A stretch of DNA of 64,000 nt from Leptotrichia shahii (GTDB taxonomy: Bacteria; Fusobacteriota; Fusobacteriia; Fusobacteriales; Leptotrichiaceae). Where the stretch lies: NCBI RefSeq assembly GCF_008327825.1, contig NZ_AP019827.1, positions 1,302,001 to 1,366,000 on the forward strand, given 5' to 3'. Below the pieces are notes generated by a model that was not told the origin of the DNA, did not search any database, and saw only the letters and a program-made list of their open reading frames with translations. Positions 5,736 to 62,928 of the stretch are shown here, in pieces (positions within the stretch are counted from its first letter, which is position 1; each line of letters starts with the position of its first letter). Made by a program: the position numbers and the translations under genes.

Positions 5736-6290
5736 TTATTCAAAAACTGATGGTTCCGCTATTCCCACATACTCAAGGTTTCTATAATTTTCATTAAAAT
5801 CAAGCCCATATCCTACAACAAATTCATTTGGAATTTCAAATCCAACATATTGCACATTAACTTCAACTTCTCTTCTTTCAGGCTTATCTAAAAGTGTGCA
5901 AAGCGATATTTTCTTAGGATTTCTGCTTCCCAAAATTTGCAATACTTTTTTTAACGTAAATCCTGAATCAATAATATCTTCAACTACCAAAACATTTTTC
6001 CCGTTAATTGTACTTCTCAGATCCTTCAAAATTTTAACTTCCCTAGAACTCTGAGTTCCTTCTCCATAACTAGAAGCCTCTATAAAATCAATCTCAAGCG
6101 GCAATTTTATTTCCCTAATCAAATCAGCCATAAACACAATAGATCCCTTCAAAAGCCCTACTATTATTAGCGGCTCATTCTCATTTTTAAAATCTTCAGT
6201 AATTTTTTCTCCCAACTCCTTCACTTTTTTATGAAGCTCTTCCTTTGTAATTAGCTGTTTTTTTATTCCAAATTCAAAATCTTTGTTCAT
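5736..6290 (-). CDS. hpt: Hypoxanthine phosphoribosyltransferase
   Basis: Purine salvage enzyme that joins hypoxanthine (or guanine) with PRPP to give IMP (or GMP). The PRPP-binding loop VVEDIIDSG lies at residues 102-110, and the family's conserved 'SSYG' flexible-loop segment is at 73-76. Its 184 residues match the Hpt/HprT family, and the usual C-terminal 'VGYGLDFNE' block is present. The ATG start is preceded by an AAGGAG-type site. It stands alone, with family A repeats on both sides. Confidence 0.95.
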   Translation of the reverse strand: MNKDFEFGIKKQLITKEELHKKVKELGEKITEDFKNENEPLIIVGLLKGSIVFMADLIREIKLPLEIDFIEASSYGEGTQSSREVKILKDLRSTINGKNVLVVEDIIDSGFTLKKVLQILGSRNPKKISLCTLLDKPERREVEVNVQYVGFEIPNEFVVGYGLDFNENYRNLEYVGIAEPSVFE

Positions 6291-6317
6291 GATTTTCTCC
6301 TTATTGTTTATATTTTT

Positions 6318-6480
6318 TATTATTTATAAAAATTTATAAAATTCCATTAATATAGCATTTTTTAAGTTTAATTCTTAATGTTTTTTACTACTTTTTGACA
6401 AGTGATCTTAACTTTTTACTGCCATAGACGCTATTACTGCTTAATTTTATATGATTTTTCTTTTATAATTTTCCATATTT
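6318..6480. repeat. Degenerate intergenic repeat, family A copy 2
   Basis: Same order of blocks as the copy at 5541-5699: 'tatttataaaaattta', then 'atagcattttttaa', 'tttttgacaagtgatctt', 'ctattactgctt' and a closing 'cttttataattttcc'. The central palindrome has decayed. It sits upstream of hpt. Confidence 0.5.
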
Positions 6481-6501
6481 AGTTTATTTTAATTTACACT
6501 A

Positions 6502-6529
6502 TTGACTTTTTTAATTTTTGTGTTATAAT
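6502..6529 (+). promoter_or_regulatory. Strong promoter with no protein gene downstream
   Basis: TTGACT (6502-6507), 16-bp spacer, TATAAT (6524-6529). It points into about 220 bp of non-coding sequence that ends in a terminator, and opposes the rplT operon. Confidence 0.75.
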
Positions 6530-6535
6530 ATTAAT

Positions 6536-6755
6536 GTTGAGGAAATGTTAAGCGATGTTTAACAATCTCTCGGCTGTATAGGGAAATTGTTTTTTTGAAT
6601 AAAAGACCATTTTATGAGATAGCCCAAAAAAACATTATTTATTTAATTTCCCTATATAAAAAGGGCTATCTCATAACCTAAAGTTAATCTATTTTGTAAG
6701 ATTTACAAGTATAGTCCTTTTGATTAAATCTAATTCATTTAGATTTTTTTTATTT
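6536..6755 (+). ncRNA. Candidate structured small RNA of about 215 nt
   Basis: A consensus promoter (6502-6529) and an intrinsic terminator (stem AAATCTAA / TTAGATTT at 6726-6733 and 6739-6746, then a T-run) enclose a stretch without a meaningful ORF. Inside are a short hairpin (TGTTAA / TTAACA, about 6546-6563) and two long inverted repeats that interleave: TATAGGGAAATT (6577-6588) pairs with 6645-6656, and TTATGAGATAGCCC (6612-6625) pairs with 6663-6676. They form an H-type pseudoknot pattern or two exclusive folds. The length would suit 6S RNA, but I see no diagnostic 6S sequence and do not claim it. Confidence 0.6.
6726..6755 (+). terminator. Intrinsic terminator of the candidate small RNA
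   Basis: Stem of 8 bp with a 5-nt loop (TTCAT), followed by T(4)ATTTT. Nothing is encoded upstream on this strand other than the candidate RNA. Confidence 0.65.
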
Positions 6756-13990: not shown

Positions 13991-14411
13991 CTGCCACTTT
14001 TACAAAATATGGACTTACTAGCCTTATATATTTATGATATTTTATTTTTATCTTTCTCTTACTCTCCATTCCTTCCTTAATTTTCCTAAAAATCTTTTCA
14101 AATAATATTTCTTCACGTTTATATCGTAAATTATTGATATATGTAAAAATTATATTTCTCCAATATTCAGCCTCAGTTTCAACTCCACTTCTAACAAAAG
14201 TATCCATAAAAATTTCATCATTATTTTTATTCAAGTTAAACTGCAGCACTTCTCCTGAAAAGTTCCCCAATTCAACTTTATTCAAATTTTTGTCCATATA
14301 ATATTTAAAAATTATGTTCCCTATCCTTCCCACAGGCATTTTAAAATACTCCGAATCACTTTTTATAATTTCATTCATAAAATCCGAAATTGTAACTCTA
14401 ACCTTCTTCAT
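13947..14411 (-). CDS. WYL-domain transcriptional regulator, N-terminal part
   Basis: Starts at ATG 14409-14411 with AGGAG seven bases upstream; a TTG two codons earlier is less likely. The first about 45 residues (MKKVRVTISDFMNEII...) look like a small DNA-binding region, perhaps ribbon-helix-helix. A helical segment and the start of a WYL domain ('KIKIKYHKYIRLVSPYF') follow. The frame stops at 13947 just after 'SYLFCYCEK', and the rest of the WYL domain is in the next frame (13565-13990). WYL proteins often sense ligands or nucleic acid and control defence or stress loci. This one heads the operon with the glycine-zipper and AAA-FGE genes. Confidence 0.8.
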   Translation of the reverse strand: MKKVRVTISDFMNEIIKSDSEYFKMPVGRIGNIIFKYYMDKNLNKVELGNFSGEVLQFNLNKNNDEIFMDTFVRSGVETEAEYWRNIIFTYINNLRYKREEILFEKIFRKIKEGMESKRKIKIKYHKYIRLVSPYFVKVADDENRSYLFCYCEK

Positions 14412-14506
14412 AGCCAATCTCCTAAAATAACAATATTTTTTAACTTCTAAATCTAATTTTAAGCCATTTTCCTTAAATTTAATCCCCGATTATTTTTTCT
14501 ACACAA

Positions 14507-14535
14507 ATTATATCTAATATCAAAGTGAAATACAA
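14507..14535 (-). promoter_or_regulatory. Promoter of the WYL/glycine-zipper/AAA-FGE operon
   Basis: Minus strand: TTGTAT (14535-14530), 17-bp spacer, TATAAT (14512-14507), about 95 bp before the WYL start codon. Confidence 0.65.
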
Positions 14536-14679
14536 GGAAATATTTGTTTTCAATTTTTGTTCCCCTAAAAAATAGAAAACCGTGAAATTATCGAAAAAAA
14601 TTACTAAATTTTTATTATTTCTGTTCCTTAAAATAGAATTTACTTTTTTTCAAATAGTATTCCCTTATTTTAAAAAATA

Positions 14680-14688
14680 TGATATAAT
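14680..14688 (+). promoter_or_regulatory. Extended -10 promoter of the metNIQ operon
   Basis: TGATATAAT (14680-14688) is an extended -10 (TGnTATAAT). The -35 position 17 bp upstream (ttccct) is poor, as is common with extended -10 promoters. Confidence 0.6.
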
Positions 14689-14738
14689 TTTGAAGTTATT
14701 ACATTTTAAAATTAAATACAAAAATAATTGGAGGTGAA

Positions 14739-15410
14739 ATGGTAGAACTTAAAAACATTGAAAAAAATTATATCGGTTTTGATTTAAAAATAAATTTAAA
14801 GATTAACAAAGGAGAAATCTTTGGATTAATTGGACAGTCAGGAAGCGGAAAATCGACAATTTTAAGAATTATTCAAAGAATTTTGAAAGCTGATAAAGGA
14901 GAAATTAATATTGCAAAGAATACTGAAACTGCTTATATTTTTCAGGAATTTAATCTTTTGTATAACAAAAATGTCTTTGATAATGTTGCTCTTCCCTTAA
15001 TTTTAAAGAAAAAATTTTCAGCTGAAAAAGTTAAGGAAGTTTTGAAATTTGTGGGGCTGTCTGACAGGAAAGAATCATTTATTGCTTCCCTTAGCGGCGG
15101 CGAAAGGCAGAGAGTGGCGATTGCCCGTGCGTTAGTGTCAAATCCGCAATTACTGCTTTGTGATGAAGTTACAGCTTCTTTGGATAAATCTGTAAAAGAT
15201 GAAATACTTGACTTATTTGAGGAAATAAATAAAAAGTATGGAACGACTATTTTAGTTGTTACTCACGAACTGGAAGTTGTAAAAAGGCTATGCAGCAGGG
15301 TGGCGGTTATTGAAAAAGGTAAAATTACAGATATTTTCAATGTTAATCAGAAGGATTATGAAAAATCAAACAAAAGTTATGCCGATTATGTGAGGGAGGT
15401 TCTGAAATGA
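14739..15410 (+). CDS. metN: Methionine ABC transporter ATP-binding protein (short MetN)
   Basis: Energises uptake of methionine with MetI and MetQ. Walker A GQSGSGKST is at residues 32-40, the ABC signature LSGGERQR at 118-125, Walker B LLLCDEV at 138-144, and the switch His in 'VVTHE' follows. At 223 residues it lacks the C-terminal regulatory NIL/ACT domain found in MetN of about 340 residues, so feedback inhibition by internal methionine may be absent. It overlaps metI by 4 bp (ATGA), and its ATG is preceded by GGAGGTG. Confidence 0.88.
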   Translation: MVELKNIEKNYIGFDLKINLKINKGEIFGLIGQSGSGKSTILRIIQRILKADKGEINIAKNTETAYIFQEFNLLYNKNVFDNVALPLILKKKFSAEKVKEVLKFVGLSDRKESFIASLSGGERQRVAIARALVSNPQLLLCDEVTASLDKSVKDEILDLFEEINKKYGTTILVVTHELEVVKRLCSRVAVIEKGKITDIFNVNQKDYEKSNKSYADYVREVLK

Positions 15411-41002: not shown

Positions 41003-41049
41003 AAAAAAAATTGTCTAATCGTTTCAGCAAAGAAATAACTAGACAATTT
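41003..41049 (-). terminator. Terminator of the envelope-protein cluster
   Basis: Stem AAATTGTCTA / TAGACAATTT (41049-41040 and 41017-41008), then T(6+) on the minus strand, just after the OmpA-like gene. Confidence 0.85.
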
Positions 41050-41059
41050 ATAATTATTA

Positions 41060-41587
41060 CTATTTTGTAGCTTTAAATTCAATTCTTCTGTTTTCAAATC
41101 TTCCTTGTTCAGTATCATTCGGAGCGATTGGTTCAGATTCCCCTCTTGATTCTACACCTAAAATTCTTGCAGGGTCTAATCCAAATTCTAACAATTTATC
41201 TCTAACTGCTATTGCCCTTCTCATACCTAAAGCCATATTATATGCATCAGAACCTTTAGAATCTGTATGTCCTATAATTGTTAATTTGAAATCATTTTGT
41301 TCAGCATAGTCTTTAACATTTCTTAATAATTCAAAGTATTGAGGTTTAACTACTGATTTATCAAAATCAAAGTTCAATCTTCCAGAATCAAATACCCAAA
41401 CATCATCTTTCTTAGGTTCTGGAACTGGCTCTGGAATCGGTTCTGGAGCTGGTTCTTCTAACTCAAGAGCATTAATTCTAATTGTATTCTCTCTCATTTG
41501 AGTAGTTGTCAGCCTTCTTGCCATCAATGGTGAAGCAACTAACAACCCTAATGCAATTATTGTTGTTGTTGTTGATCGTCTACCCAT
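41060..41587 (-). CDS. OmpA-family peptidoglycan-binding outer-membrane protein
   Basis: 175 residues. The N-terminal signal has an unusual Thr-run (RRSTTTTIIALGLL), probably cleaved after 'PLMA'. A Pro/Glu-rich linker (about 45-62) leads to an OmpA C-terminal domain with 'LNFDFDKSVVKP', 'IIGHTDSKGSDAYN' and 'NRRIEFKATK', which binds diaminopimelate of peptidoglycan. There is no N-terminal barrel. The start region overlaps the preceding lipoprotein gene by 31 bp, in a stretch of CAA repeats read in two frames. Last gene of the cluster. Confidence 0.88.
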   Translation of the reverse strand: MGRRSTTTTIIALGLLVASPLMARRLTTTQMRENTIRINALELEEPAPEPIPEPVPEPKKDDVWVFDSGRLNFDFDKSVVKPQYFELLRNVKDYAEQNDFKLTIIGHTDSKGSDAYNMALGMRRAIAVRDKLLEFGLDPARILGVESRGESEPIAPNDTEQGRFENRRIEFKATK

Positions 41588-41757
41588 TTTTCAGCCTCTC
41601 TTTCTAATGATCTATATTTTTGGCTACCTGGATTTGGTTTATTTTCATCTAAATAATCTTCAATATGATTCAATCTAGTTGTATTATAATCTACTAATTT
41701 TGCATTTGTACAAGACAAAGCTCCTAATCCTACTAATATTAATGCTAACTTTTTCAT
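41557..41757 (-). CDS. Small lipoprotein
   Basis: 66 residues. Lipoprotein signal with lipobox 'ALSC' (Cys16), then a short charged helix ('RLNHIEDYLDENKPNPGSQKYRSLEREAEKW') ending in five glutamines. No family recognised. The five-Gln tail is encoded by a CAA run that the following OmpA-like gene reads as Thr. Between two exported proteins it is probably an envelope helper. Confidence 0.75.
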   Translation of the reverse strand: MKKLALILVGLGALSCTNAKLVDYNTTRLNHIEDYLDENKPNPGSQKYRSLEREAEKWVDDQQQQQ

Positions 41758-41835
41758 ATTTCTAATTTCCTTTCTAATTCATCCAAATTTATTTTTGAAA
41801 TTTTTTAATCAATTACTATATTACAGTATAACTTT

Positions 41836-42324
41836 CTAGTTCATTTTCTCTTGGATAGCATCCAATCTTTGTTCCATTTGATCCAACATTTCATTTGTTT
41901 TATGGAATTTTTCAATATTGCTATTAATTTGATCTACTCTTTTTCTAATTCTTTGAATTTCTACATCCATCATTTTACTTTCAGACATATTTTTTCTTTG
42001 AGCTCTTATTTCTCTTGTTTTTGTTTTTCTTTGTTGAGCTGCTTCTTTAGCTTTTTCTGCTCTTTCTTGTGCCTGTGCCCTAGCAGCTTCAGCCTTTTGA
42101 CGTGCATCTTCACTTGTAGCTGGTGTTACAGTTTCTTCAACTGGAACTACTATAACTTCTTCTTCTACAACGCCTTTTGCTGCTTCTTTAGCTTGTTGAG
42201 CTTGTCTTTGCTTAGCCACTTTGACTAGTCTTTGCACTGCGGCATCAGTATCTTTTTGAGCTGAGAATGATAATTGACTTATTGCCAAAACCATTACCGC
42301 TGCTAATCCTAATATTTTTTTCAT
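41836..42324 (-). CDS. Exported coiled-coil protein
   Basis: 162 residues. Signal peptide (cleavage likely after 'LSFSA', about residue 22). An acidic Val/Glu/Pro stretch (about 50-68) separates an Ala/Gln-rich helix from a long charged coiled coil ('ARAQAQERAEKAKEAAQQRK', then 'RIRKRVDQINSNIEKF' to the end). No enzyme motif. It shares length class and setting with FadA-like proteins but not their sequence pattern. Confidence 0.7.
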   Translation of the reverse strand: MKKILGLAAVMVLAISQLSFSAQKDTDAAVQRLVKVAKQRQAQQAKEAAKGVVEEEVIVVPVEETVTPATSEDARQKAEAARAQAQERAEKAKEAAQQRKTKTREIRAQRKNMSESKMMDVEIQRIRKRVDQINSNIEKFHKTNEMLDQMEQRLDAIQEKMN

Positions 42325-42385
42325 TGATTTTCCTTTCTAAATATCATTAAATGTTATTTTGGTTTAAATAATTGAATTGGCTTAA

Positions 42386-42769
42386 TTATTTAACTTTTCT
42401 TGTTTTTTTAGGACTATTTTTAACACCGTCTCTTCCAAGAACACTATCAAATTCTCCTAATTCTTTTTCTTCTCTCTGCACACTTCTTACTACTCTTTCG
42501 TAAAAATCCACTCTAGCTGCTGCTTTAGCTGCATTGTATTCAAGTTTTTCAATTGATGATTTTGGCTTAACTCTTTCTTTTTCTTCAACTACTCCATCTT
42601 CATCTATTGTTACTAATTTTTCTGTTGTCATTTCACGCTCTTTTGGAGCTTTTAAACTTTTATAGTAATCTTCTCTAGCTTGTTTTAACGCTTGCTGTGC
42701 AGAATCTGCCATCATTGGAACAGATAATGCAGCTACTATCCCACACAATAATATTTTTTTTGCTTTCAT
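42386..42769 (-). CDS. Small exported helical protein
   Basis: 127 residues. Signal peptide ending near 'PMMA' (residue 21). Mature part is a charged helical protein ('QQALKQAREDYYKSL', 'AARVDFYERVVRSVQREEKEL') with a basic C-terminus. No family recognised. Gene order and spacing (23 bp after the FadA-like gene) suggest a shared transcript and envelope role. Confidence 0.65.
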   Translation of the reverse strand: MKAKKILLCGIVAALSVPMMADSAQQALKQAREDYYKSLKAPKEREMTTEKLVTIDEDGVVEEKERVKPKSSIEKLEYNAAKAAARVDFYERVVRSVQREEKELGEFDSVLGRDGVKNSPKKTRKVK

Positions 42770-42791
42770 CCTTTAATTACCATTCCTTTCA

Positions 42792-43178
42792 TTAATTCAT
42801 TACTGATAATAATGCATCCAATTCAGCAATTTTTTTCTCTTTTTGTGCTATGCTTTTATTTATATTTTTATAGATAGTTTCAGAATTTTTTAGTATTTTT
42901 TTATATTTATCTCTGTGCCATCTTACTTCTGAATCTACTTTTAATTTTTCTGCTAATTTTTCCCTACTTGTTTGTTTTTCTTTCAAATCTTCCAATTCAG
43001 CTTCTAATTGAGCTTTTTGCTGAATGTAACTTTGCTTTTGCGCTTCTTCTTTTTTCATCAATTCATTGAATTGGCTTTCAATTGAATTTAAACTGCCTTC
43101 TAAACTCTTTTTTTCAGCAGAGAAACCTATTGATGAAACCATCATTATTCCAACTAATAAGAATATTGTTTTTTTCAT
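42792..43178 (-). CDS. FadA-like adhesin family protein
   Basis: 128 residues. A signal peptide (cleavage about 'IGFSA', residue 20) precedes an alpha-helical hairpin: a first helix with 'LNSIESQFNELMKKEEAQ', a mid-helix run of Gln/Glu/Lys, and 'RWHRDKYKKILKNSE', close in pattern to the '.RFYKSQYQDL.' region of FadA from Fusobacterium nucleatum. FadA forms amyloid-like surface filaments and binds cadherins; whether this relative adheres to host cells is unknown. First gene of the five-gene cluster, with a long structured leader upstream. Confidence 0.75.
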   Translation of the reverse strand: MKKTIFLLVGIMMVSSIGFSAEKKSLEGSLNSIESQFNELMKKEEAQKQSYIQQKAQLEAELEDLKEKQTSREKLAEKLKVDSEVRWHRDKYKKILKNSETIYKNINKSIAQKEKKIAELDALLSVMN

Positions 43179-43184
43179 TTTATT

Positions 43185-43420
43185 TTCCTCCTATTTTTTA
43201 TTTGCGTAAAACTCCCGTAATATAAAAGTTACAGGGTTACTGAGCAATAGCTATTTTTATTAGCTAATTGAACTTACCAGTTTTCCCAGTAGTTCCTTAG
43301 GTTTGTATATACTTAAAAATGTATTATGTATACATATAAAACTCTAAATGTATAAATGTAATTTTTAGTTATCAAACCAATATGGAACTACTATCAAATC
43401 ACTTACTTAATCATCACTTG
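43185..43420 (-). promoter_or_regulatory. Promoter and structured 5' leader of the FadA-like cluster
   Basis: Promoter on the minus strand: extended -10 TGGTATAAT ending near 43422, with TTGTAT 17 bp further upstream. The leader (about 235 nt) contains a long-range pairing: 43288-43296 (AGTAGTTCC) with 43384-43392, and 43300-43305 with 43373-43378, plus a CCCTGTAA / TTACGGG hairpin nearer the gene. No known riboswitch was recognised. Apart from these elements the 43179-43543 gap holds nothing I can identify. Confidence 0.6.
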
Positions 43421-43543
43421 CTTTTATTATACCAAATTATATAAAAAAATACAATTAAATTTTTAAATAAAATATAAAAATTATAACTCTATATAAAAAA
43501 TTATTTAAATTTAACAAAAAAATTATTTTTTATTCCAATAAAT

Positions 43544-56019: not shown

Positions 56020-59000
56020 TTAGTAAATAGCTCTAAATCCAATTCCACCTCTTACATTGTTACCTTTAGTATCGTATCCAGCATTTACCGTAACACCAAA
56101 TCTTGTGTTATCTACTCCGATATTTAAATCAAACTTACCGTTTCCACGTCTGTCTTCTTTTTCTTTCTCCAAGTTATACCATCCAGCAGTTGTATATCCT
56201 ACTCTTGCTTGATTTCCTTCTTGAAGTTTTCCAATTTCGTTTTCGTAAGCTGCTGTTAACCCTACTGTCAAGTTTGTTTTTACTGCAAGTGGCTGAACGT
56301 ATTTAAATTCCATTCCAACTTCAGGTTTTACTGAGAAGTAGTCGTTTCCTTTAACTTCTAATCTCATTTGTCCTGTTTTCTCTTTTATCTCATTAAATTT
56401 GCCATATTCCATTTTTAATGCTCCGTATGGACGTAAATGTGTTCTTTCACTCATTCTTATGTCATAGCCTATCTCATTTTTAATAGCCGCTCCATAAGAA
56501 TGGTAAGTTGATTTAGCCTCAAAAGTATCGTCAACTACCCAGAATCTACGTTTCATATTATTAACTCCAGCAAATACATCTCCTGAAATTGTCCATTGCA
56601 ATGCACCATTATAATCCCCTTTAGGTGACAATGTTTTAAATACTCCAAGTTTTACCATTGTTTGATCTTCTGTTGAATGTCCAATATCTTTAAACTTGAA
56701 TCTATTTGTTACAGCTCCTGCATACCATCCAATTGAATTACCCATTCTAACTTTTTCATCTTCATGAACATAAGCTACACCGTAGGCATTGCTTCTATAA
56801 TCAATAATTCCTGCTGTATCAGTGCTGTACTCATCTCTCGTACCAAATGCTTTAATCTTGTTATTTTGTTTAGAAGGATTTCTCCATTCGTCTCTTAAAT
56901 ATCTAAATTCTTTATCCAATGTATTTCCAGTTGCATTGATTCTTTGCTGAGTATTTGCATATTGGTGTCCTTTCATTTCATCCACAGCCTGTGTGAAGAT
57001 ATGAGTTTCACCTTTACCAAGTCCATTAAGTTTGTCAAAGATTAATCTTTCTCTTGATCCTAGAGGTTCAACACCGTATCTTTGTTCCAATCCATCAAGG
57101 AAATTGTATGTATTTTCATCTTTTACACTTGCAAAGAATGTATAAGGTATCTTTATCATATACAATGTTTCAATTGGTTTACTTGTTCCTTGTAAAGGCT
57201 GTGCAAGCCAAGTAAGTCCTGCTGAATTAATATTTAATGTTGTTCCTGTTGTAGTCAATGAAGATATAGCATCATTATATGGTTTCAAAATATTTTCACC
57301 AATTTCAATTGCTTTTGCGTCAGTATATTTAGCTGCTTCTGTACCAATAATAAGATTAATATTTTCAAGTCCAACTAAGTTACTTAATCCTTGAATAGGA
57401 TTTGTATAGTTTACTCCTGAAGTATCAACATACATTCCAACTTCCGTTACTTGAGCGTTTGAAACTGTATTTGCATACAATGGCAATGATAAATCAAGTG
57501 TTGTCGAACCTGCTGTTACATATGCAGGTGTTGGACTTGCTATATTTGTATCTACTCCTGTAAGTGTTACTTCTCTATCATTAATTGTTAATCTTGGTGC
57601 TTTTGGAGGATTTTGAATTAATAGTTTCCCTTTTGGCGTTACAATATACTTCTGATCGGTAGAAGTCGCAGAATACACAGCCGCTTTTGTTCCACTTACT
57701 GTTCCTGTACCAGCTGTTGGCTCATTCTTTTGACTTAATGCTGACAATGCATCTTGGTATATTCCTATTCCTCCAGGAGAAGTAATCGAGATAGTACCGT
57801 AGTTCTTAATATATCCACCATTTACTGTCGCAACTCCTTTAATTCCTGAAGCTGTTCCAGTAGATTTAATAGTTCCATAGTTTACCCCTTCAGCTCCTTG
57901 GTCAATATACATACCAGTTGCATTTTTACCAGAAATATCAATTGTACCGTGATTGATAGCTTTTGAACCTGCTCCTACAGCGTACATACCTATTGAATTA
58001 TCTTTACCTACATTAATAGTTCCTCTATTTTCAATAAGCCCTTCGTTTGAAATCGCTCCAGTTGTTTCATTGTAGTATCCTGTTGCCATACCAATACCAT
58101 ATTCTTTAGCAACCAAGTCAGTTCCACCAACTGTTATTGTTCCATAGTTAGTTGCACCTAATCCAGCTAAGCTTCTTCCTGTCGAATAAATACCAACATT
58201 CCCATTTCCACCAGTTAAATCAATATTTCCATAATTTTCTGTTTTTCCAGCAGTATACAGTCCGTATGATTTTCCACCAGTAGTTGTAATATCAGTATTA
58301 CTGTAAACATATCCGTTTTTATCATTTGAATAAGCATAAACTGAATCTGGTCCAAGTGAAGCTGTTAATTTATTTGTTGCTGTACCAAGCAATAAATCAG
58401 TTCCTGTCGTAGAATCTACAACATAACCAAACGCATTTGTTCCAACAGTCATATTAGTTCCTGTATTTTTAACTGTTGTTTTCAAAGGATTTGTAGCATC
58501 ATCTGCAATAAATACCCCTACTGCCTGGTTATTACCAACATTAATTGTTCCACCTCGTAAATCTACTGTTGAAGCTGTAATTGTTCTATTATCAGATGAA
58601 CCAGTTGCAAAAATACCTACCCCATCTTCTCCAACATTAATCGTTCCATTTGACATAGTTACATCATTTGAGGCTCCATAAATACCATAAGATTTCTTAC
58701 CAATATTTAAAGTTCCAGATGTTTCTATTGTTGTATCAGCATCATTTGTAAACATACCAATTATTGGTGTAACTCCTGTTGTATCAGCAAGTTCAAGTGT
58801 TCCTTTATTTATAAGAGTGGAACTTAATCTATCTGTCGGCGCTGTCATTGCCGCACCTGTGGCATAAGTTCCATACATTGCCACACCTTCTTGCCCGCTT
58901 ATTGTAATTTTACCTGTTGTGTCATTTGTAATTTCTCCACCTTCGGTAATCATACCAATAGCATTTTTACCTGACATTGTAATTTCACCTTTATTTGAAG

Positions 59001-62000
59001 ATAGAGTGTAACCATTCCCTATTCTAGCATAATCTGTATTTGTTCCAGTGGCATTCAAACTATTATTTTTAGTATAAATTCCTAAAGCATTTTCTCCATC
59101 AAGTGTAATTTTACCATTATTTGTAACATCTACATAACCAAGTTTAGTTGCAAACACTGCTGGACCTGCTGTTCCAAACTTCTCATAGACAACATTACCA
59201 GCACTGTCTATTCTATAAGAAAGCCCAAGAATACCAATACTGTCTTTACCACCAACTTCAATAGTTCCATTAGTTTTATTATCCACTTGTGTTCCATTTG
59301 TAGCATAAAGTCCTACTGCAAAATCATTTGGTGTTGTCTTTTCAACTTCAATTTTTCCATCATTAGAAATAGTTCCATAGTTTACATACGCACCTACTCC
59401 ACCATTTCCGCTATCTGTTCTATCTACAGTAATTGTAGCACCATTTGCAACATTTACTCCTGTTGTAGCTCTGCTTGTAGATTTTCCACTCGCACTTATA
59501 TCAAGCCCAACTGGCACGTTTAAGTCAGGATTTATTGAATTAAGTTCTGTTGTATTTAAATGAGCTTTTACAGTATTTCCTGAAAGTACGTTTATATTTG
59601 AATTTTGCAATTGAATTCTTCTTGTGAAAATATAACTATCTGATGGTGTAGCTCCTCCTGTAGTATCTCCTTTATCAATATTACTGTCAACATCTACTGT
59701 TATTCCATCAAATACAGTATATTTATATCCATCATAAGTTGTTGTACCTTCTACATTAGTAATTTTTGTTATTGGTATATATGTTCCTATTGTATTAGCT
59801 GCATTACCATTAATGTATGAACCATTTGTATTAAATTTAGTTACTCCTGTTAAATTTGCTACAATTACATCATTTGAAAATACATTAATTTTTGTGTCTG
59901 TCAAAGTAATTGGCTGTGTTGCTGCTGTTACATCTCTTGAATATCCAGTTGAACTTCCTCTTAATGTTAAAGTTCCGTAAGATAAATCAATTTCTCCACC
60001 TTCAGATGAAAATAATGCGTATCCTTTACCATCGTATTCTACTGTACCTCCTGCATTAGTAGCAGTTCCTGATAAATCAATTCTAGAATTTACAGCAGGT
60101 GTTGCTCCAGATTTTCCTACTGAGGCAATCGCAGTCCCACCATTTACAACTTTAATATTGTTATTTTTAGCACTAATTTGTGCTCCTTTTCCAGCATATA
60201 ATCCAAATCCTGTATAACTACCCGTTCCAGTTGCTGCTTTTGTTGTAGGATCAATAGTTACAATTTCTGTTCCTGTTATTGTAATATTAGGATTTGCTGG
60301 AGTGACAGGTGTTGTCGCTGGTGCAATGGTCGGCATATCAATATTTACTGATGTTTGTTCTCCAGTTGCATAAACAGCTCCTGCACTTTCTCCACCTGCT
60401 ATTGTTGGATTTGCTGAAACTGTTGCTCCTTTAATAGTAATACCATCTGTTACTTTTACTACAGAACCTACCACTGAATTTCCTGAAACCCCGTCATCCG
60501 CTGCATAAATAGCAACCGAATTTTGAGTATTATTTGATTCTATTTTTCTTACTATTACAGTTTCATTAACTCCTGAAGGACGAGTTGAACCTTTAGCATA
60601 AATTGCCAAGTTTCCTTTTCCACCCTCTAACTTAACATCCCCTGTTGATTTTACAGCTCCCGCTGGATTAACTGTCACTCCACCAGATGTCGTATATTTG
60701 TCTACAACATAAATTCCTATATTGCTATTTCCACCTTTAAGTTCTATATTTCCTCCACCTAAATCAAGTAAAACATTTGCATTTGGCATTACCCCAACAT
60801 TAGATTCTGTTTTATCAAAGATTTCGATTTGATGGCTTGTCAAATTAATTGCAGAATTTGAAAGAATACCAAAACTATTTCTAATATATTCAGGATGTTT
60901 ATTTAACTCAGGATCTGAATTATAAGGATTAAGTAATGAATCTGTAGGGTTTACATCATGATTCATAGCAGCAGTAATCACTACACCGTTCGTTTCTGCA
61001 CCAGTTGCTGTAGGTATAGTAGTTGTTTTATTTGTTACAAAATTTTGATTTCCTACCCCTGCTGCTCCTATATTAATTGCAAGATTTCCTTCTGTTTTTG
61101 AATATTGATTTTGTCCACTTGCACTGCTTTCATAATAACCAACACTTGAATCACCATAAATAGTTAATGGTTTATATTGATATGGAGTTCCCGGCGTTTT
61201 ATCATTTGGCTTATTATCTGCTACATTAAAAGTAAATCCTTCTTCTACAAATTGTAAATCTGTTCTTGTAGGATATAGGAAAAATGTTCCTACACTACCT
61301 TCAGCATATAAATTAATAGATCCTCTATTGACTAAACTAACAGGCAGATTATTTCCAACTCTATCACCGTTCATTATCCAAGTTCCACCATTTCCTGCGG
61401 CATTTAAAAAATATGCAGATTTATTAGTCCATACATCTATTTTTCCTGTACTTCCGTTATAAGAAATAGCATGATGTCTTTCTTTATCTCTGTCGTTACT
61501 ATCATTTGATAAACTAAAAACAGCATTTTGAGTTTCCGTATAGTTTGTCCCATCAAAATGTGGTTGGATTAATATTTCACCAGTATTTATTGCAACTGAT
61601 TTTGAATCTTCTGCATTATTATGATCATAATTATTAGTAACCGCATTATTTCTTCCTTCCATAACTATTCTACCACTATTTATCCAAGCAAATAATCCTG
61701 AACCAGAAGTAGTTTGTTTATTATTTTGAATAACTGTTCCATTTACATTATTCACCACATCATTATAAGCACCTAAAACTGCCGCTTGAGTTGAACCGTT
61801 AGTTACTGTTGAATCCCAAGTTGCATCTGAAGTTGCTGAAGTTAAACCTGCCACTGCAGCTGTTCCGTTTGCAGTATGTACATGGTGATCCATATGTACA
61901 AATTCTCTAACAGCTGGATTTCCTGAATATGTAAAACTATTAGTATTTGTAAGAAGGTTTTTTGTATTTGTCAAACCTGTTCCAGAAACAAGTTTTTGAA

Positions 62001-62928
62001 ATCCCAAATAACTTCCTGTTGTGCCATTTCCTGTTTCTCCATTCCAAGGTGCTGATGTTATATCACCACCACTACTAAGAGATCCCCATGGCGATGTCCC
62101 ACTGTATTGATTGTACTCATAGTCCATTGTACCATTAGATTTTCTAATAATATTAAAATTACCCTTTCCTGAAGCAACACTTTCAATTGCACCGTTACTT
62201 CTATTTTTTTGAAAAGCTGTACGTGAAGAACTATTTCCATTTGATTCTCCTGTTAAATTGAAACTAAATGAACCAATACTTGGAGCTTTTGGAGCACTCG
62301 GAGCTAATGGATCATTCACCGTTCTAGGCTCAAACGACGGTAAACTTGCAATCGCCACATTTTTTTGAATATTTGGATTAGTTTTTGTTATTGATTTTGG
62401 TGTGATTGAAGCACTTATAGGAATTGCTGCATTTGGCTCGTAGGCAAATCCTAATGTTGTTGTGTTATTCGCATTTTTTTCGTTTATTGGTTTTGCGATA
62501 TATTTGTTTAAAGTCTGATCTCTTTTGTAAATGATGTTGTCAATTTTATTTCCTTTACCTTTGAAAGTTCCATGCCAGTCATTATAAAAATAATTCATTC
62601 CATATTGCCAGCTGCTCCAAGGTGATTTTGTTACATGATCTCCTTGTTCCATTAACTGAGTCAGTTCTAAATTCGTATCTTTAATTAATTTATTGTTTTC
62701 CTTTCTAGCCCTTTTAAAATTTGTACGAATTTGAGCAATTGAAGTGTTTATCTCGCTCACCTGATTCTTAATACCTGAATCTTCACTTGCAGCTAGACCA
62801 TTACCTGTAATAAAGACTAGACCAGTCATTAAAAATGTAATCAGTGAAGAATCTGTATACTTAAATCCTTTTGTTCTTTTCGCAAATGTACGCAGATCCT
62901 GTGAAATCTTTCTAAGATTATTTGTCAT
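56020..62928 (-). CDS. Giant type Va autotransporter adhesin-like protein
   Basis: 2302 residues. The extended N-terminus (1-30; basic) and hydrophobic stretch ('FLMTGLVFITGNGLAAS', 29-46) form a long signal peptide. A coiled coil (about 52-95) and a 'WSSWQYGMNYFYNDWHG' block follow, as in fusobacterial autotransporters. Residues about 450-1800 are a beta-helix-like passenger with many short repeats such as 'GTINVGKDNSIGMY', 'GNVGIYSTG' and 'ISGKNATGMYID'. Residues about 2020-2302 form a 12-strand-type barrel that ends in aromatic 'GFRAIY'. The nearest concept is the RadD/Fap2-like adhesin class, but the binding partner is unknown. SD AAAAGGAG precedes ATG. Confidence 0.9.
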   Translation of the reverse strand: MTNNLRKISQDLRTFAKRTKGFKYTDSSLITFLMTGLVFITGNGLAASEDSGIKNQVSEINTSIAQIRTNFKRARKENNKLIKDTNLELTQLMEQGDHVTKSPWSSWQYGMNYFYNDWHGTFKGKGNKIDNIIYKRDQTLNKYIAKPINEKNANNTTTLGFAYEPNAAIPISASITPKSITKTNPNIQKNVAIASLPSFEPRTVNDPLAPSAPKAPSIGSFSFNLTGESNGNSSSRTAFQKNRSNGAIESVASGKGNFNIIRKSNGTMDYEYNQYSGTSPWGSLSSGGDITSAPWNGETGNGTTGSYLGFQKLVSGTGLTNTKNLLTNTNSFTYSGNPAVREFVHMDHHVHTANGTAAVAGLTSATSDATWDSTVTNGSTQAAVLGAYNDVVNNVNGTVIQNNKQTTSGSGLFAWINSGRIVMEGRNNAVTNNYDHNNAEDSKSVAINTGEILIQPHFDGTNYTETQNAVFSLSNDSNDRDKERHHAISYNGSTGKIDVWTNKSAYFLNAAGNGGTWIMNGDRVGNNLPVSLVNRGSINLYAEGSVGTFFLYPTRTDLQFVEEGFTFNVADNKPNDKTPGTPYQYKPLTIYGDSSVGYYESSASGQNQYSKTEGNLAINIGAAGVGNQNFVTNKTTTIPTATGAETNGVVITAAMNHDVNPTDSLLNPYNSDPELNKHPEYIRNSFGILSNSAINLTSHQIEIFDKTESNVGVMPNANVLLDLGGGNIELKGGNSNIGIYVVDKYTTSGGVTVNPAGAVKSTGDVKLEGGKGNLAIYAKGSTRPSGVNETVIVRKIESNNTQNSVAIYAADDGVSGNSVVGSVVKVTDGITIKGATVSANPTIAGGESAGAVYATGEQTSVNIDMPTIAPATTPVTPANPNITITGTEIVTIDPTTKAATGTGSYTGFGLYAGKGAQISAKNNNIKVVNGGTAIASVGKSGATPAVNSRIDLSGTATNAGGTVEYDGKGYALFSSEGGEIDLSYGTLTLRGSSTGYSRDVTAATQPITLTDTKINVFSNDVIVANLTGVTKFNTNGSYINGNAANTIGTYIPITKITNVEGTTTYDGYKYTVFDGITVDVDSNIDKGDTTGGATPSDSYIFTRRIQLQNSNINVLSGNTVKAHLNTTELNSINPDLNVPVGLDISASGKSTSRATTGVNVANGATITVDRTDSGNGGVGAYVNYGTISNDGKIEVEKTTPNDFAVGLYATNGTQVDNKTNGTIEVGGKDSIGILGLSYRIDSAGNVVYEKFGTAGPAVFATKLGYVDVTNNGKITLDGENALGIYTKNNSLNATGTNTDYARIGNGYTLSSNKGEITMSGKNAIGMITEGGEITNDTTGKITISGQEGVAMYGTYATGAAMTAPTDRLSSTLINKGTLELADTTGVTPIIGMFTNDADTTIETSGTLNIGKKSYGIYGASNDVTMSNGTINVGEDGVGIFATGSSDNRTITASTVDLRGGTINVGNNQAVGVFIADDATNPLKTTVKNTGTNMTVGTNAFGYVVDSTTGTDLLLGTATNKLTASLGPDSVYAYSNDKNGYVYSNTDITTTGGKSYGLYTAGKTENYGNIDLTGGNGNVGIYSTGRSLAGLGATNYGTITVGGTDLVAKEYGIGMATGYYNETTGAISNEGLIENRGTINVGKDNSIGMYAVGAGSKAINHGTIDISGKNATGMYIDQGAEGVNYGTIKSTGTASGIKGVATVNGGYIKNYGTISITSPGGIGIYQDALSALSQKNEPTAGTGTVSGTKAAVYSATSTDQKYIVTPKGKLLIQNPPKAPRLTINDREVTLTGVDTNIASPTPAYVTAGSTTLDLSLPLYANTVSNAQVTEVGMYVDTSGVNYTNPIQGLSNLVGLENINLIIGTEAAKYTDAKAIEIGENILKPYNDAISSLTTTGTTLNINSAGLTWLAQPLQGTSKPIETLYMIKIPYTFFASVKDENTYNFLDGLEQRYGVEPLGSRERLIFDKLNGLGKGETHIFTQAVDEMKGHQYANTQQRINATGNTLDKEFRYLRDEWRNPSKQNNKIKAFGTRDEYSTDTAGIIDYRSNAYGVAYVHEDEKVRMGNSIGWYAGAVTNRFKFKDIGHSTEDQTMVKLGVFKTLSPKGDYNGALQWTISGDVFAGVNNMKRRFWVVDDTFEAKSTYHSYGAAIKNEIGYDIRMSERTHLRPYGALKMEYGKFNEIKEKTGQMRLEVKGNDYFSVKPEVGMEFKYVQPLAVKTNLTVGLTAAYENEIGKLQEGNQARVGYTTAGWYNLEKEKEDRRGNGKFDLNIGVDNTRFGVTVNAGYDTKGNNVRGGIGFRAIY

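What the first reader, a model, noticed from the sequence alone, without database searches (positions are those of the whole stretch)
41060..43178. Five-gene envelope cluster: FadA-like protein, two coiled-coil proteins, lipoprotein and OmpA
All five products carry export signals. The order joins a FadA-like helical hairpin with an OmpA peptidoglycan anchor and a lipoprotein. It may be a surface-filament assembly unit in which the small proteins are subunits or chaperones.
Basis: partly seen in the sequence, partly recalled or inferred. Interest (0 to 1): 0.5.

Follow-up and report, generated by a model that had tools for sequence, protein, structure and literature searches.

The report
Autotransporter helper-gene module in Leptotrichia
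Five small neighbouring genes for exported proteins in a Leptotrichia genome look like a helper-and-anchor set for the giant surface adhesins of fusobacteria, because in related bacteria the same five genes mostly sit right beside an adhesin gene.

Summary
Five same-strand ORFs (43178 down to 41060) encode a FadA-family protein, two helical proteins (P2, P3), a lipoprotein and an OmpA-domain protein, each with an export signal by eye. The order is the same in 13 of 13 Leptotrichia genomes. The 'surface filament' reading is not what comparison favours. In other genera the module lies directly beside a large autotransporter gene in 17 of 19 copies with readable flanks: downstream in 13 of 15, upstream in 4 of 4. 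P3 passes the FAD-I family cut-off; FAD-I belongs to the radD adhesin operon of F. nucleatum. FadA-family genes occur in 33 of the 35 genomes carrying this autotransporter class and in 0 of 63 others. In Leptotrichia the module stands alone, once per genome, beside 4-15 unlinked autotransporter matches. My reading: an accessory complex for type V adhesins, tethered to peptidoglycan by OmpA, acting in trans in Leptotrichia. The association is shown; the mechanism is inferred. It is an extended variant of the radABC gene set, whose FadA, however, is a different subfamily.

The parts
42792..43178 (-). FadA-family protein of the module subfamily, 128 aa, first gene
   Evidence: PF09403 66.3 bits, cut-off 28.5; separate clade from solo FadAs; DSEVRWHRDxY motif in 30 of 31 copies
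42386..42769 (-). P2, exported helical protein, 127 aa, motif FYxRVVRSVxREE
   Evidence: alignment A2; motif in 31 of 31 copies; AF2 helix 72-110
41836..42324 (-). P3, FAD-I-family helical protein without a lipobox, 162 aa
   Evidence: NF041845 36.7 bits, cut-off 35; alignment A3; AF2
41557..41757 (-). small lipoprotein, 66 aa
   Evidence: Cys after the hydrophobic stretch in 20 of 20 aligned rows
41060..41587 (-). OmpA-domain protein, 175 aa, with conserved N-terminal motif LTTTQMRENTIRINALE
   Evidence: PF00691; best solved relative 5u1h, OprF; motif and D109/R124
41557..41587 (-). overlap of the lipoprotein and ompA genes (31 bp)
   Evidence: an overlap of 22-49 bp in 27 and 4 bp in 4 of 31 copies
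43426..43454 (-). promoter-like block: TTGTAT, 17 nt, TATAAT with TGG before it
   Evidence: read by eye from an alignment of 12 Leptotrichia upstream regions; not among the sites of the pattern scan
41008..41049 (-). hairpin followed by a U-run after ompA, likely terminator
   Evidence: -17.2 kcal/mol, z -4.3; not listed by the pattern scan
56020..62928 (-). 2302-aa autotransporter about 13 kb upstream: candidate client, not part of the unit
   Evidence: NF033175 and PF03797

Best explanation
The five genes form one transcription unit for an accessory complex of fusobacterial type V autotransporter adhesins. Shown: composition, conserved order, and close genomic association with these autotransporters outside Leptotrichia. 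Inferred: all five proteins are exported; the lipoprotein sits in a membrane leaflet facing the periplasm; the OmpA domain grips peptidoglycan; the near-invariant N-terminal peptide of OmpA and the motifs of the three helical proteins bind one another and the autotransporter (its periplasmic face, or its N-terminal helical segment during export). The complex would tether, fold or dose the adhesin, much as TpgA does for AtaA. In Leptotrichia one orphan copy would serve several unlinked autotransporters in trans.
For: Adjacency to an autotransporter in 17 of 19 non-Leptotrichia copies with readable flanks, with the adhesin downstream in some genera and upstream in g9. FadA family in 33 of 35 genomes with the NF033175 class and 0 of 63 without. 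P3 is FAD-I family. A motif-bearing OmpA gene alone directly precedes a 2670-aa autotransporter in G039, and a lone module lipoprotein a 2305-aa one in G081. Ligand Asp/Arg kept in 31 of 31 OmpA copies. Autotransporter barrels of linked and unlinked genes are interleaved. TpgA precedent (PMC8151025, passages).
Against: No adhesin gene adjoins the unit in the 12 Leptotrichia genomes that could be examined, nor one G081 and one G066 copy. 13 of the 35 autotransporter genomes lack a strong module-lipoprotein match, so the class does not need the full module. In F. nucleatum, rapA and rapB deletions had no consistent effect and fad-I deletion raised radD transcript (PMC7023056, passages). The FadA of a true rad operon (G039) falls outside the module FadA clade, on a long branch. 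No protein contact has been shown.
Confidence: 0.6

Rival explanations
1. Regulatory or sensing module: the FAD-I-like protein and its partners set adhesin expression, with little structural role.
For: fad-I deletion raises radD transcript about 3.5- and 6-fold in two F. nucleatum subspecies (PMC7023056, passages). P3 is of the FAD-I family.
Against: It does not explain a peptidoglycan-binding OmpA, a lipoprotein, or five co-conserved exported proteins. No signalling domain was found in them.
Confidence: 0.15
2. General envelope tether or stress complex; autotransporter genes merely settled beside it.
For: A stand-alone copy in Leptotrichia with the same kind of neighbours (an ORF of Obg length, 427 aa, in 11 of 11 flanks read). 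Two further OmpA paralogues with related N-terminal motifs in 13 of 13 Leptotrichia genomes.
Against: Adjacency recurs with the adhesin on either side. No strong module-lipoprotein match (E under 1e-20) in the 63 genomes without the autotransporter class, odd for a housekeeping tether. Five copies in G081.
Confidence: 0.13
3. Surface-filament unit: FadA-like and coiled-coil proteins polymerise on the surface, anchored by OmpA and the lipoprotein.
For: FadA-family membership, OmpA domain, long helices. FadA filaments and amyloid are discussed in print (PMC13432900, passages).
Against: Module FadAs form a separate clade with their own motif. The constant partner in other genera is an autotransporter. 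No usher, pilin or assembly gene lies in the unit.
Confidence: 0.08

Closest known systems
radABCD (rapA-rapB-fad-I-radD) operon of Fusobacterium nucleatum
   Same: FadA-family first gene, small exported helical proteins, a FAD-I-family third gene, and in relatives an autotransporter as next gene
   Different: Two extra genes (lipoprotein, OmpA); P3 has no lipobox; P2 is only weakly tied to RadB and has no lipobox; the FadA of the G039 rad operon is outside the module clade; no adhesin gene in the Leptotrichia unit
FadA paralogues beside type V genes in F. varium
   Same: FadA-type gene close to an autotransporter gene (PMC5720691, passages); the same adjacency was seen here in G026 and G029
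   Different: P2, the strong lipoprotein match and the OmpA N-terminal motif were not found in G026-G029; G026 has one marginal lipoprotein-profile hit, E 8e-4
TpgA with the trimeric autotransporter AtaA (Acinetobacter)
   Same: A peptidoglycan-associated protein encoded with an autotransporter; needed for full surface display (PMC8151025, passages)
   Different: Clients here have the PF03797 barrel and are not trimeric; five proteins, not one. That TpgA has an OmpA-type domain is recalled
SadB with the trimeric autotransporter SadA (Salmonella)
   Same: A lipoprotein partner of an autotransporter (PMC8151025, passages)
   Different: SadB is an inner-membrane trimer for one trimeric adhesin; homology was not tested

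Membership tests
FadA family (PF09403) | match over the Pfam cut-off | tested here: met
   66.3 against 28.5 bits
FadA family (PF09403) | groups with solo FadAs (the adhesin type) | tested here: not met
   17 module FadAs are one side of a 100/100 branch, 6 solo FadAs the other; no solved FadA chain at E 0.01
FAD-I family (NF041845) | match over the NCBIfam cut-off | tested here: met
   36.7 against 35 bits; over cut-off in 19 of 98 genomes
FAD-I family (NF041845) | lipoprotein | tested here: not met
   no lipobox by eye in the 18 aligned P3 rows; the G039 FAD-I beside RadD has one
radABCD operon | second gene RadB lipoprotein | tested here: inconclusive
   P2 has no lipobox; hhalign with the G039 RadB-like protein gives probability 83%, E 9.5e-6; 3 of 18 P2 rows touch NF041844, best E 2.5e-5, and the window row does not; F. 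nucleatum RapB itself was not at hand
radABCD operon | first gene groups with the rad-operon FadA | tested here: not met
   the FadA of the G039 rad operon falls with the solo FadAs, on a long branch
radABCD operon | autotransporter as last gene | tested here: not met
   none within 7 kb after ompA here or in 11 other Leptotrichia genomes; met in 13 of 15 copies of other genera, g9 apart
OmpA-type peptidoglycan-binding proteins (PF00691) | domain match and ligand Asp/Arg | tested here: met
   E 2.9e-20; D109 and R124, D and R at this spacing in 31 of 31; that these bind diaminopimelate in other OmpAs is recalled
AtaA-TpgA type anchor | peptidoglycan-type protein encoded beside an autotransporter | tested here: inconclusive
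   met in relatives, not in the window genus
AtaA-TpgA type anchor | client is a trimeric autotransporter | tested here: not met
   PF03797 barrel in L084, L092 and the window autotransporter
AtaA-TpgA type anchor | binds both peptidoglycan and the autotransporter | not testable with these tools
   needs binding experiments

The most novel reading that the evidence does not exclude
Fusobacteria use a dedicated multi-protein, peptidoglycan-tethered complex to build or hold giant type Va autotransporters, a secretion type long regarded as needing few helpers. One stand-alone copy serves a whole repertoire in trans in Leptotrichia. The FadA family, known from a cancer-linked adhesin, arose as, or still includes, parts of this machinery, which would explain why FadA genes track this autotransporter class across the phylum (33 of 35 with, 0 of 63 without).
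Probability: 0.35. Interest if true: 0.75.

Novelty: new variant of a known kind. Interest (0 to 1): 0.52.

Why it matters
RadD- and Fap2-type adhesins mediate coaggregation, biofilms and binding to tumour and immune cells (PMC12186487 and PMC12397386, passages). If such adhesins depend on a shared accessory complex, that complex is a single handle on a whole adhesin repertoire. It would also offer a cellular role for FadA2/RapA, RapB and FAD-I: passages read here say that mechanistic evidence for FadA2 and FadA3 is lacking and that RapA/RapB deletions had no consistent effect. The Leptotrichia unit, separate from any adhesin gene, makes the question testable without disturbing an adhesin transcript.

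Tried and rejected

P2 as a FadA-like hairpin: the AF2 model (pTM 0.31) shows one well-predicted helix, 72-110, and a helix that merges with the signal peptide. No fold search was run on such low-pTM helical models.

Remnant of an autotransporter after the Leptotrichia unit: none in 7 kb in 12 genomes examined; G073 is a 3.4-kb contig and could not be examined.

Leader RNA: the roughly 150-nt longer leader of this genome, G079 and G080 has no Rfam match; three sequences fold at -25.6 kcal/mol with a covariation term of only -0.1. No claim is made.

Autotransporters near the orphan unit: within 20.2 kb in 6 of 11 Leptotrichia genomes, random mean 1.5, P 0.0018. G073 and G078 were left out, as was the G076:C3 hit; two part-hits of G080 were counted once. 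Relatedness and clustering were not corrected, so this is a hint only.

Pattern scans: 13 promoter-like sites against 13.6 expected, and one terminator-like site, on the other strand; neither scan lists the promoter or hairpin I name, which rest on conservation by eye and on folding.

FAD-I by profile: hhalign of the P3 alignment with the G039 FAD-I gives only 43% probability, E 2.5e-4, weaker than the NCBIfam match.

That the window genus is Leptotrichia rests on contigs of G071 and G073 having the lengths of NZ_AP019846.1 and NZ_KI271339.1.

Rows dropped: motif counts and the module tree use 31 complete copies. Left out: G085 (FadA cut by the contig end; kept for the flank count), G086 (cut), partial copies in G087, G088:C160, G089 and G090:4278632 (the last kept for the flank count), and weak P2 hits in G018, G046, G054, G058, G064 and G067. 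One G084 copy has a broken P3 frame and was entered with one piece. The module-lipoprotein count takes E under 1e-20; weaker hits in G016, G026, G082, G083 and G086 (E 8e-4 to 2.7e-8) are left out, three of them in genomes without the autotransporter class. Members of the 35-genome set were read from the best E-values; their number agrees with its tally. The barrel tree used 26 of 27 sequences, one with an odd C-terminus being dropped; its label needs 4 changes against a shuffled mean of 7.9, so linked genes do cluster by lineage. In the G029 distance test 2 of 19 autotransporters and 1 of 14 FadA hits, on other contigs, were left out; the G026 set includes one FadA hit below the Pfam cut-off.

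Full report
What is there. Five ORFs run on the minus strand from 43178 to 41060: a FadA-family protein, two exported helical proteins (P2, P3), a 66-aa lipoprotein and an OmpA-domain protein. The lipoprotein and ompA genes overlap by 31 bp; the two overlap in all 31 complete copies compared (22-49 bp in 27, 4 bp in 4). Upstream, a promoter-like block is conserved in the 12 Leptotrichia upstream regions aligned. After ompA a stable hairpin with a U-run probably ends the unit. Neither is in the list of the simple pattern scan. The neighbours (a Ca-ATPase-like gene; a PTS IIA-like gene, miaA and obg, named by recall from their sequences) look unrelated.

Conservation. The window lies in a 2.16-Mb genome of a genus that includes L. 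hongkongensis. All 13 genomes held of this genus have the five genes in the same order, with one strong match each. Outside it the unit occurs in G066 (2 copies), G081 (5), G084 (3), G085, G088 and G090 of the same family and in G017, G023 and G039 (2) of a second family. In g9 (G088, G090) P2 and P3 are swapped. Each protein carries a short conserved motif: DSEVRWHRDxY-like in FadA (30 of 31), FYxRVVRSVxREE-like in P2 (31 of 31), SxxMxxEIxRI in P3 (31 of 31), a CTNxKxVxYN-like motif in the lipoprotein (30 of 31), and LTTxxMRxxxIRINAxE-like in OmpA (28 of 31 by a strict pattern; the 3 misses, all from G084, differ at one position). Five co-conserved motifs suggest parts that touch one another; that is inference.

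The autotransporter link. Outside Leptotrichia and g9, 13 of 15 copies are followed on the same strand by a gene with the fusobacterial autotransporter N-terminal domain NF033175, starting about 10-550 bp after ompA. In two of these (second G039 copy; G023) the reading frame is interrupted about 226 codons in. Uninterrupted ones run from about 1990 to 3654 aa, and the two scanned (L084, L092) have the PF03797 barrel. The exceptions are one of five copies in G081 and one of two in G066, with no remnant in 7 kb. In g9, 4 of 4 copies with a readable 5' flank have an autotransporter gene ending 69-238 bp before FadA: three by PF03797, the fourth by 93% identity to one of them. Two of these four have a second, different autotransporter after ompA. 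Another of the four is a partial copy (FadA, P3, P2), followed by a 5'-nucleotidase-like gene and a two-partner secretion pair. Two g9 copies, in L079 and L078, begin at a contig end and could not be read on that side; the g9 copies in L101 and L079 have nothing like an autotransporter in the 7 kb after ompA. In G039 a motif-bearing OmpA gene alone sits 17 bp before a 2670-aa autotransporter. In G081 a lone module lipoprotein sits before a 2305-aa one. Adjacency that recurs with the adhesin on either side argues for function rather than a frozen order.

Phylum-wide co-occurrence. NF033175 is over its cut-off in 35 of 98 genomes and PF09403 in 33 of 98. All 33 lie within the 35; the two without FadA (G018, G067) are drafts. 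The other 63 have neither over the cut-offs. In four genera with mixed presence (g14, g15, g17, g22) the two agree genome by genome except in G018. The module lipoprotein (E under 1e-20) is in 22 of the 35 and 0 of the 63; weaker hits are told under rows dropped. Fisher p is 4.5e-24 for FadA, but related genomes are not independent and no phylogenetic correction was made. In G026 and G029, which lack the full module, 4 of 8 and 8 of 13 FadA genes lie within 2 kb of a same-strand autotransporter, against 0.5% and 0.9% of random points. This agrees with the report that FadA paralogues are closely located to T5SS genes in F. varium (PMC5720691, passages).

Relation to radABCD. In F. nucleatum RadD is the last gene of rapA (FadA family), rapB (predicted lipoprotein), fad-I, radD (PMC7023056, passages; called radABCD in PMC12186487, passages). 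P3 scores over the FAD-I family cut-off. P2 is only weakly tied to RadB. G039 carries both kinds: full five-gene units, and separately FadA, RadB-like lipoprotein, PPIase-like protein (PF13145), FAD-I and RadD. The FadA of that rad operon falls with the solo FadAs and not with the module FadAs, though on a long branch. So the Leptotrichia module is like the radABC set in kind and partly in sequence, with two additions (lipoprotein, OmpA), a different FadA subfamily, and no adhesin gene.

In Leptotrichia. This genome has 7 NF033175 autotransporters, one in the window at 56020-62928, and one module. The 13 genomes have 4-15 matches each, none beside the module in the 12 that could be examined. 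The module tree puts the Leptotrichia copies in one clade next to those of G066, as vertical descent would. In the barrel tree linked and unlinked autotransporters are interleaved, although the labels cluster more than shuffled ones. The simplest reading is one module serving many clients in trans; the alternative is that these clients no longer need it.

How it may work (inferred). The OmpA domain keeps the Asp and Arg that hold the peptidoglycan peptide in other OmpA proteins (positions; their role recalled). Its N-terminal peptide, joined by a Pro-rich linker here, would dock on the lipoprotein, the helical proteins or the adhesin barrel. The adhesins share a long basic signal region and a helix-like segment before the passenger, a possible contact during export. 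TpgA, co-transcribed with AtaA, lowers AtaA display when absent and binds both AtaA and peptidoglycan (PMC8151025, passages): the nearest working analogue. Against an essential role: rapA and rapB deletions had no consistent effect, and fad-I deletion raised radD transcript.

Novelty. Ten literature searches listed no paper whose listing, or the passages I read of nine papers, described the five-gene unit or its OmpA and lipoprotein parts. The library holds open-licence papers only, and I read no paper in full. The four-gene rad operon and the FadA-T5SS proximity are known. I file this as a new variant of a known kind.

Noticed in passing
L194:7566-8087 (-) and L195:4306-5073 (+), genome G000: Two further OmpA-domain proteins with a related N-terminal motif lie elsewhere in the genome; all 13 Leptotrichia genomes have such a second (E up to 4.6e-14) and a weaker third match. 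The OmpA of the autotransporter-linked G066 copy resembles the second type.
   Followed up: partly
window 43179-43400 (-): The leader upstream of FadA is about 150 nt longer in this genome, G079 and G080 than in nine other Leptotrichia genomes and may be structured; no Rfam match.
   Followed up: partly
L096 about 5870-6560 and L097 about 14400-15170: The autotransporter gene beside the module is interrupted about 226 codons in, in two different genomes; decay or phase variation was not tested.
   Followed up: no
L116:2551-14999 (-): A RadD operon in G039 holds an extra PPIase-like gene (PF13145) between the RadB-like lipoprotein and FAD-I; a second FAD-I-RadD copy is in L115.
   Followed up: partly
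L092 and L093 (G066); L095 and L096 (G039): Module copies within one genome are mosaic: in G066 FadA, P2 and P3 are 87-93% identical but the lipoprotein 59% and OmpA 46%; in G039 FadA 61% and P2 53% but P3, lipoprotein and OmpA 99%. It suggests gene conversion.
   Followed up: no
L099:1583-14232 (-): A partial module in G090 is followed by a 5'-nucleotidase-like gene and a two-partner secretion pair (ShlB-type transporter and a 2964-aa TPS-domain protein).
   Followed up: no
G000:C1:854932-855231 (+): A 216-aa open frame with a weak N-terminal match to P2 (E 7e-4), with similar weak matches in other Leptotrichia genomes.
   Followed up: no
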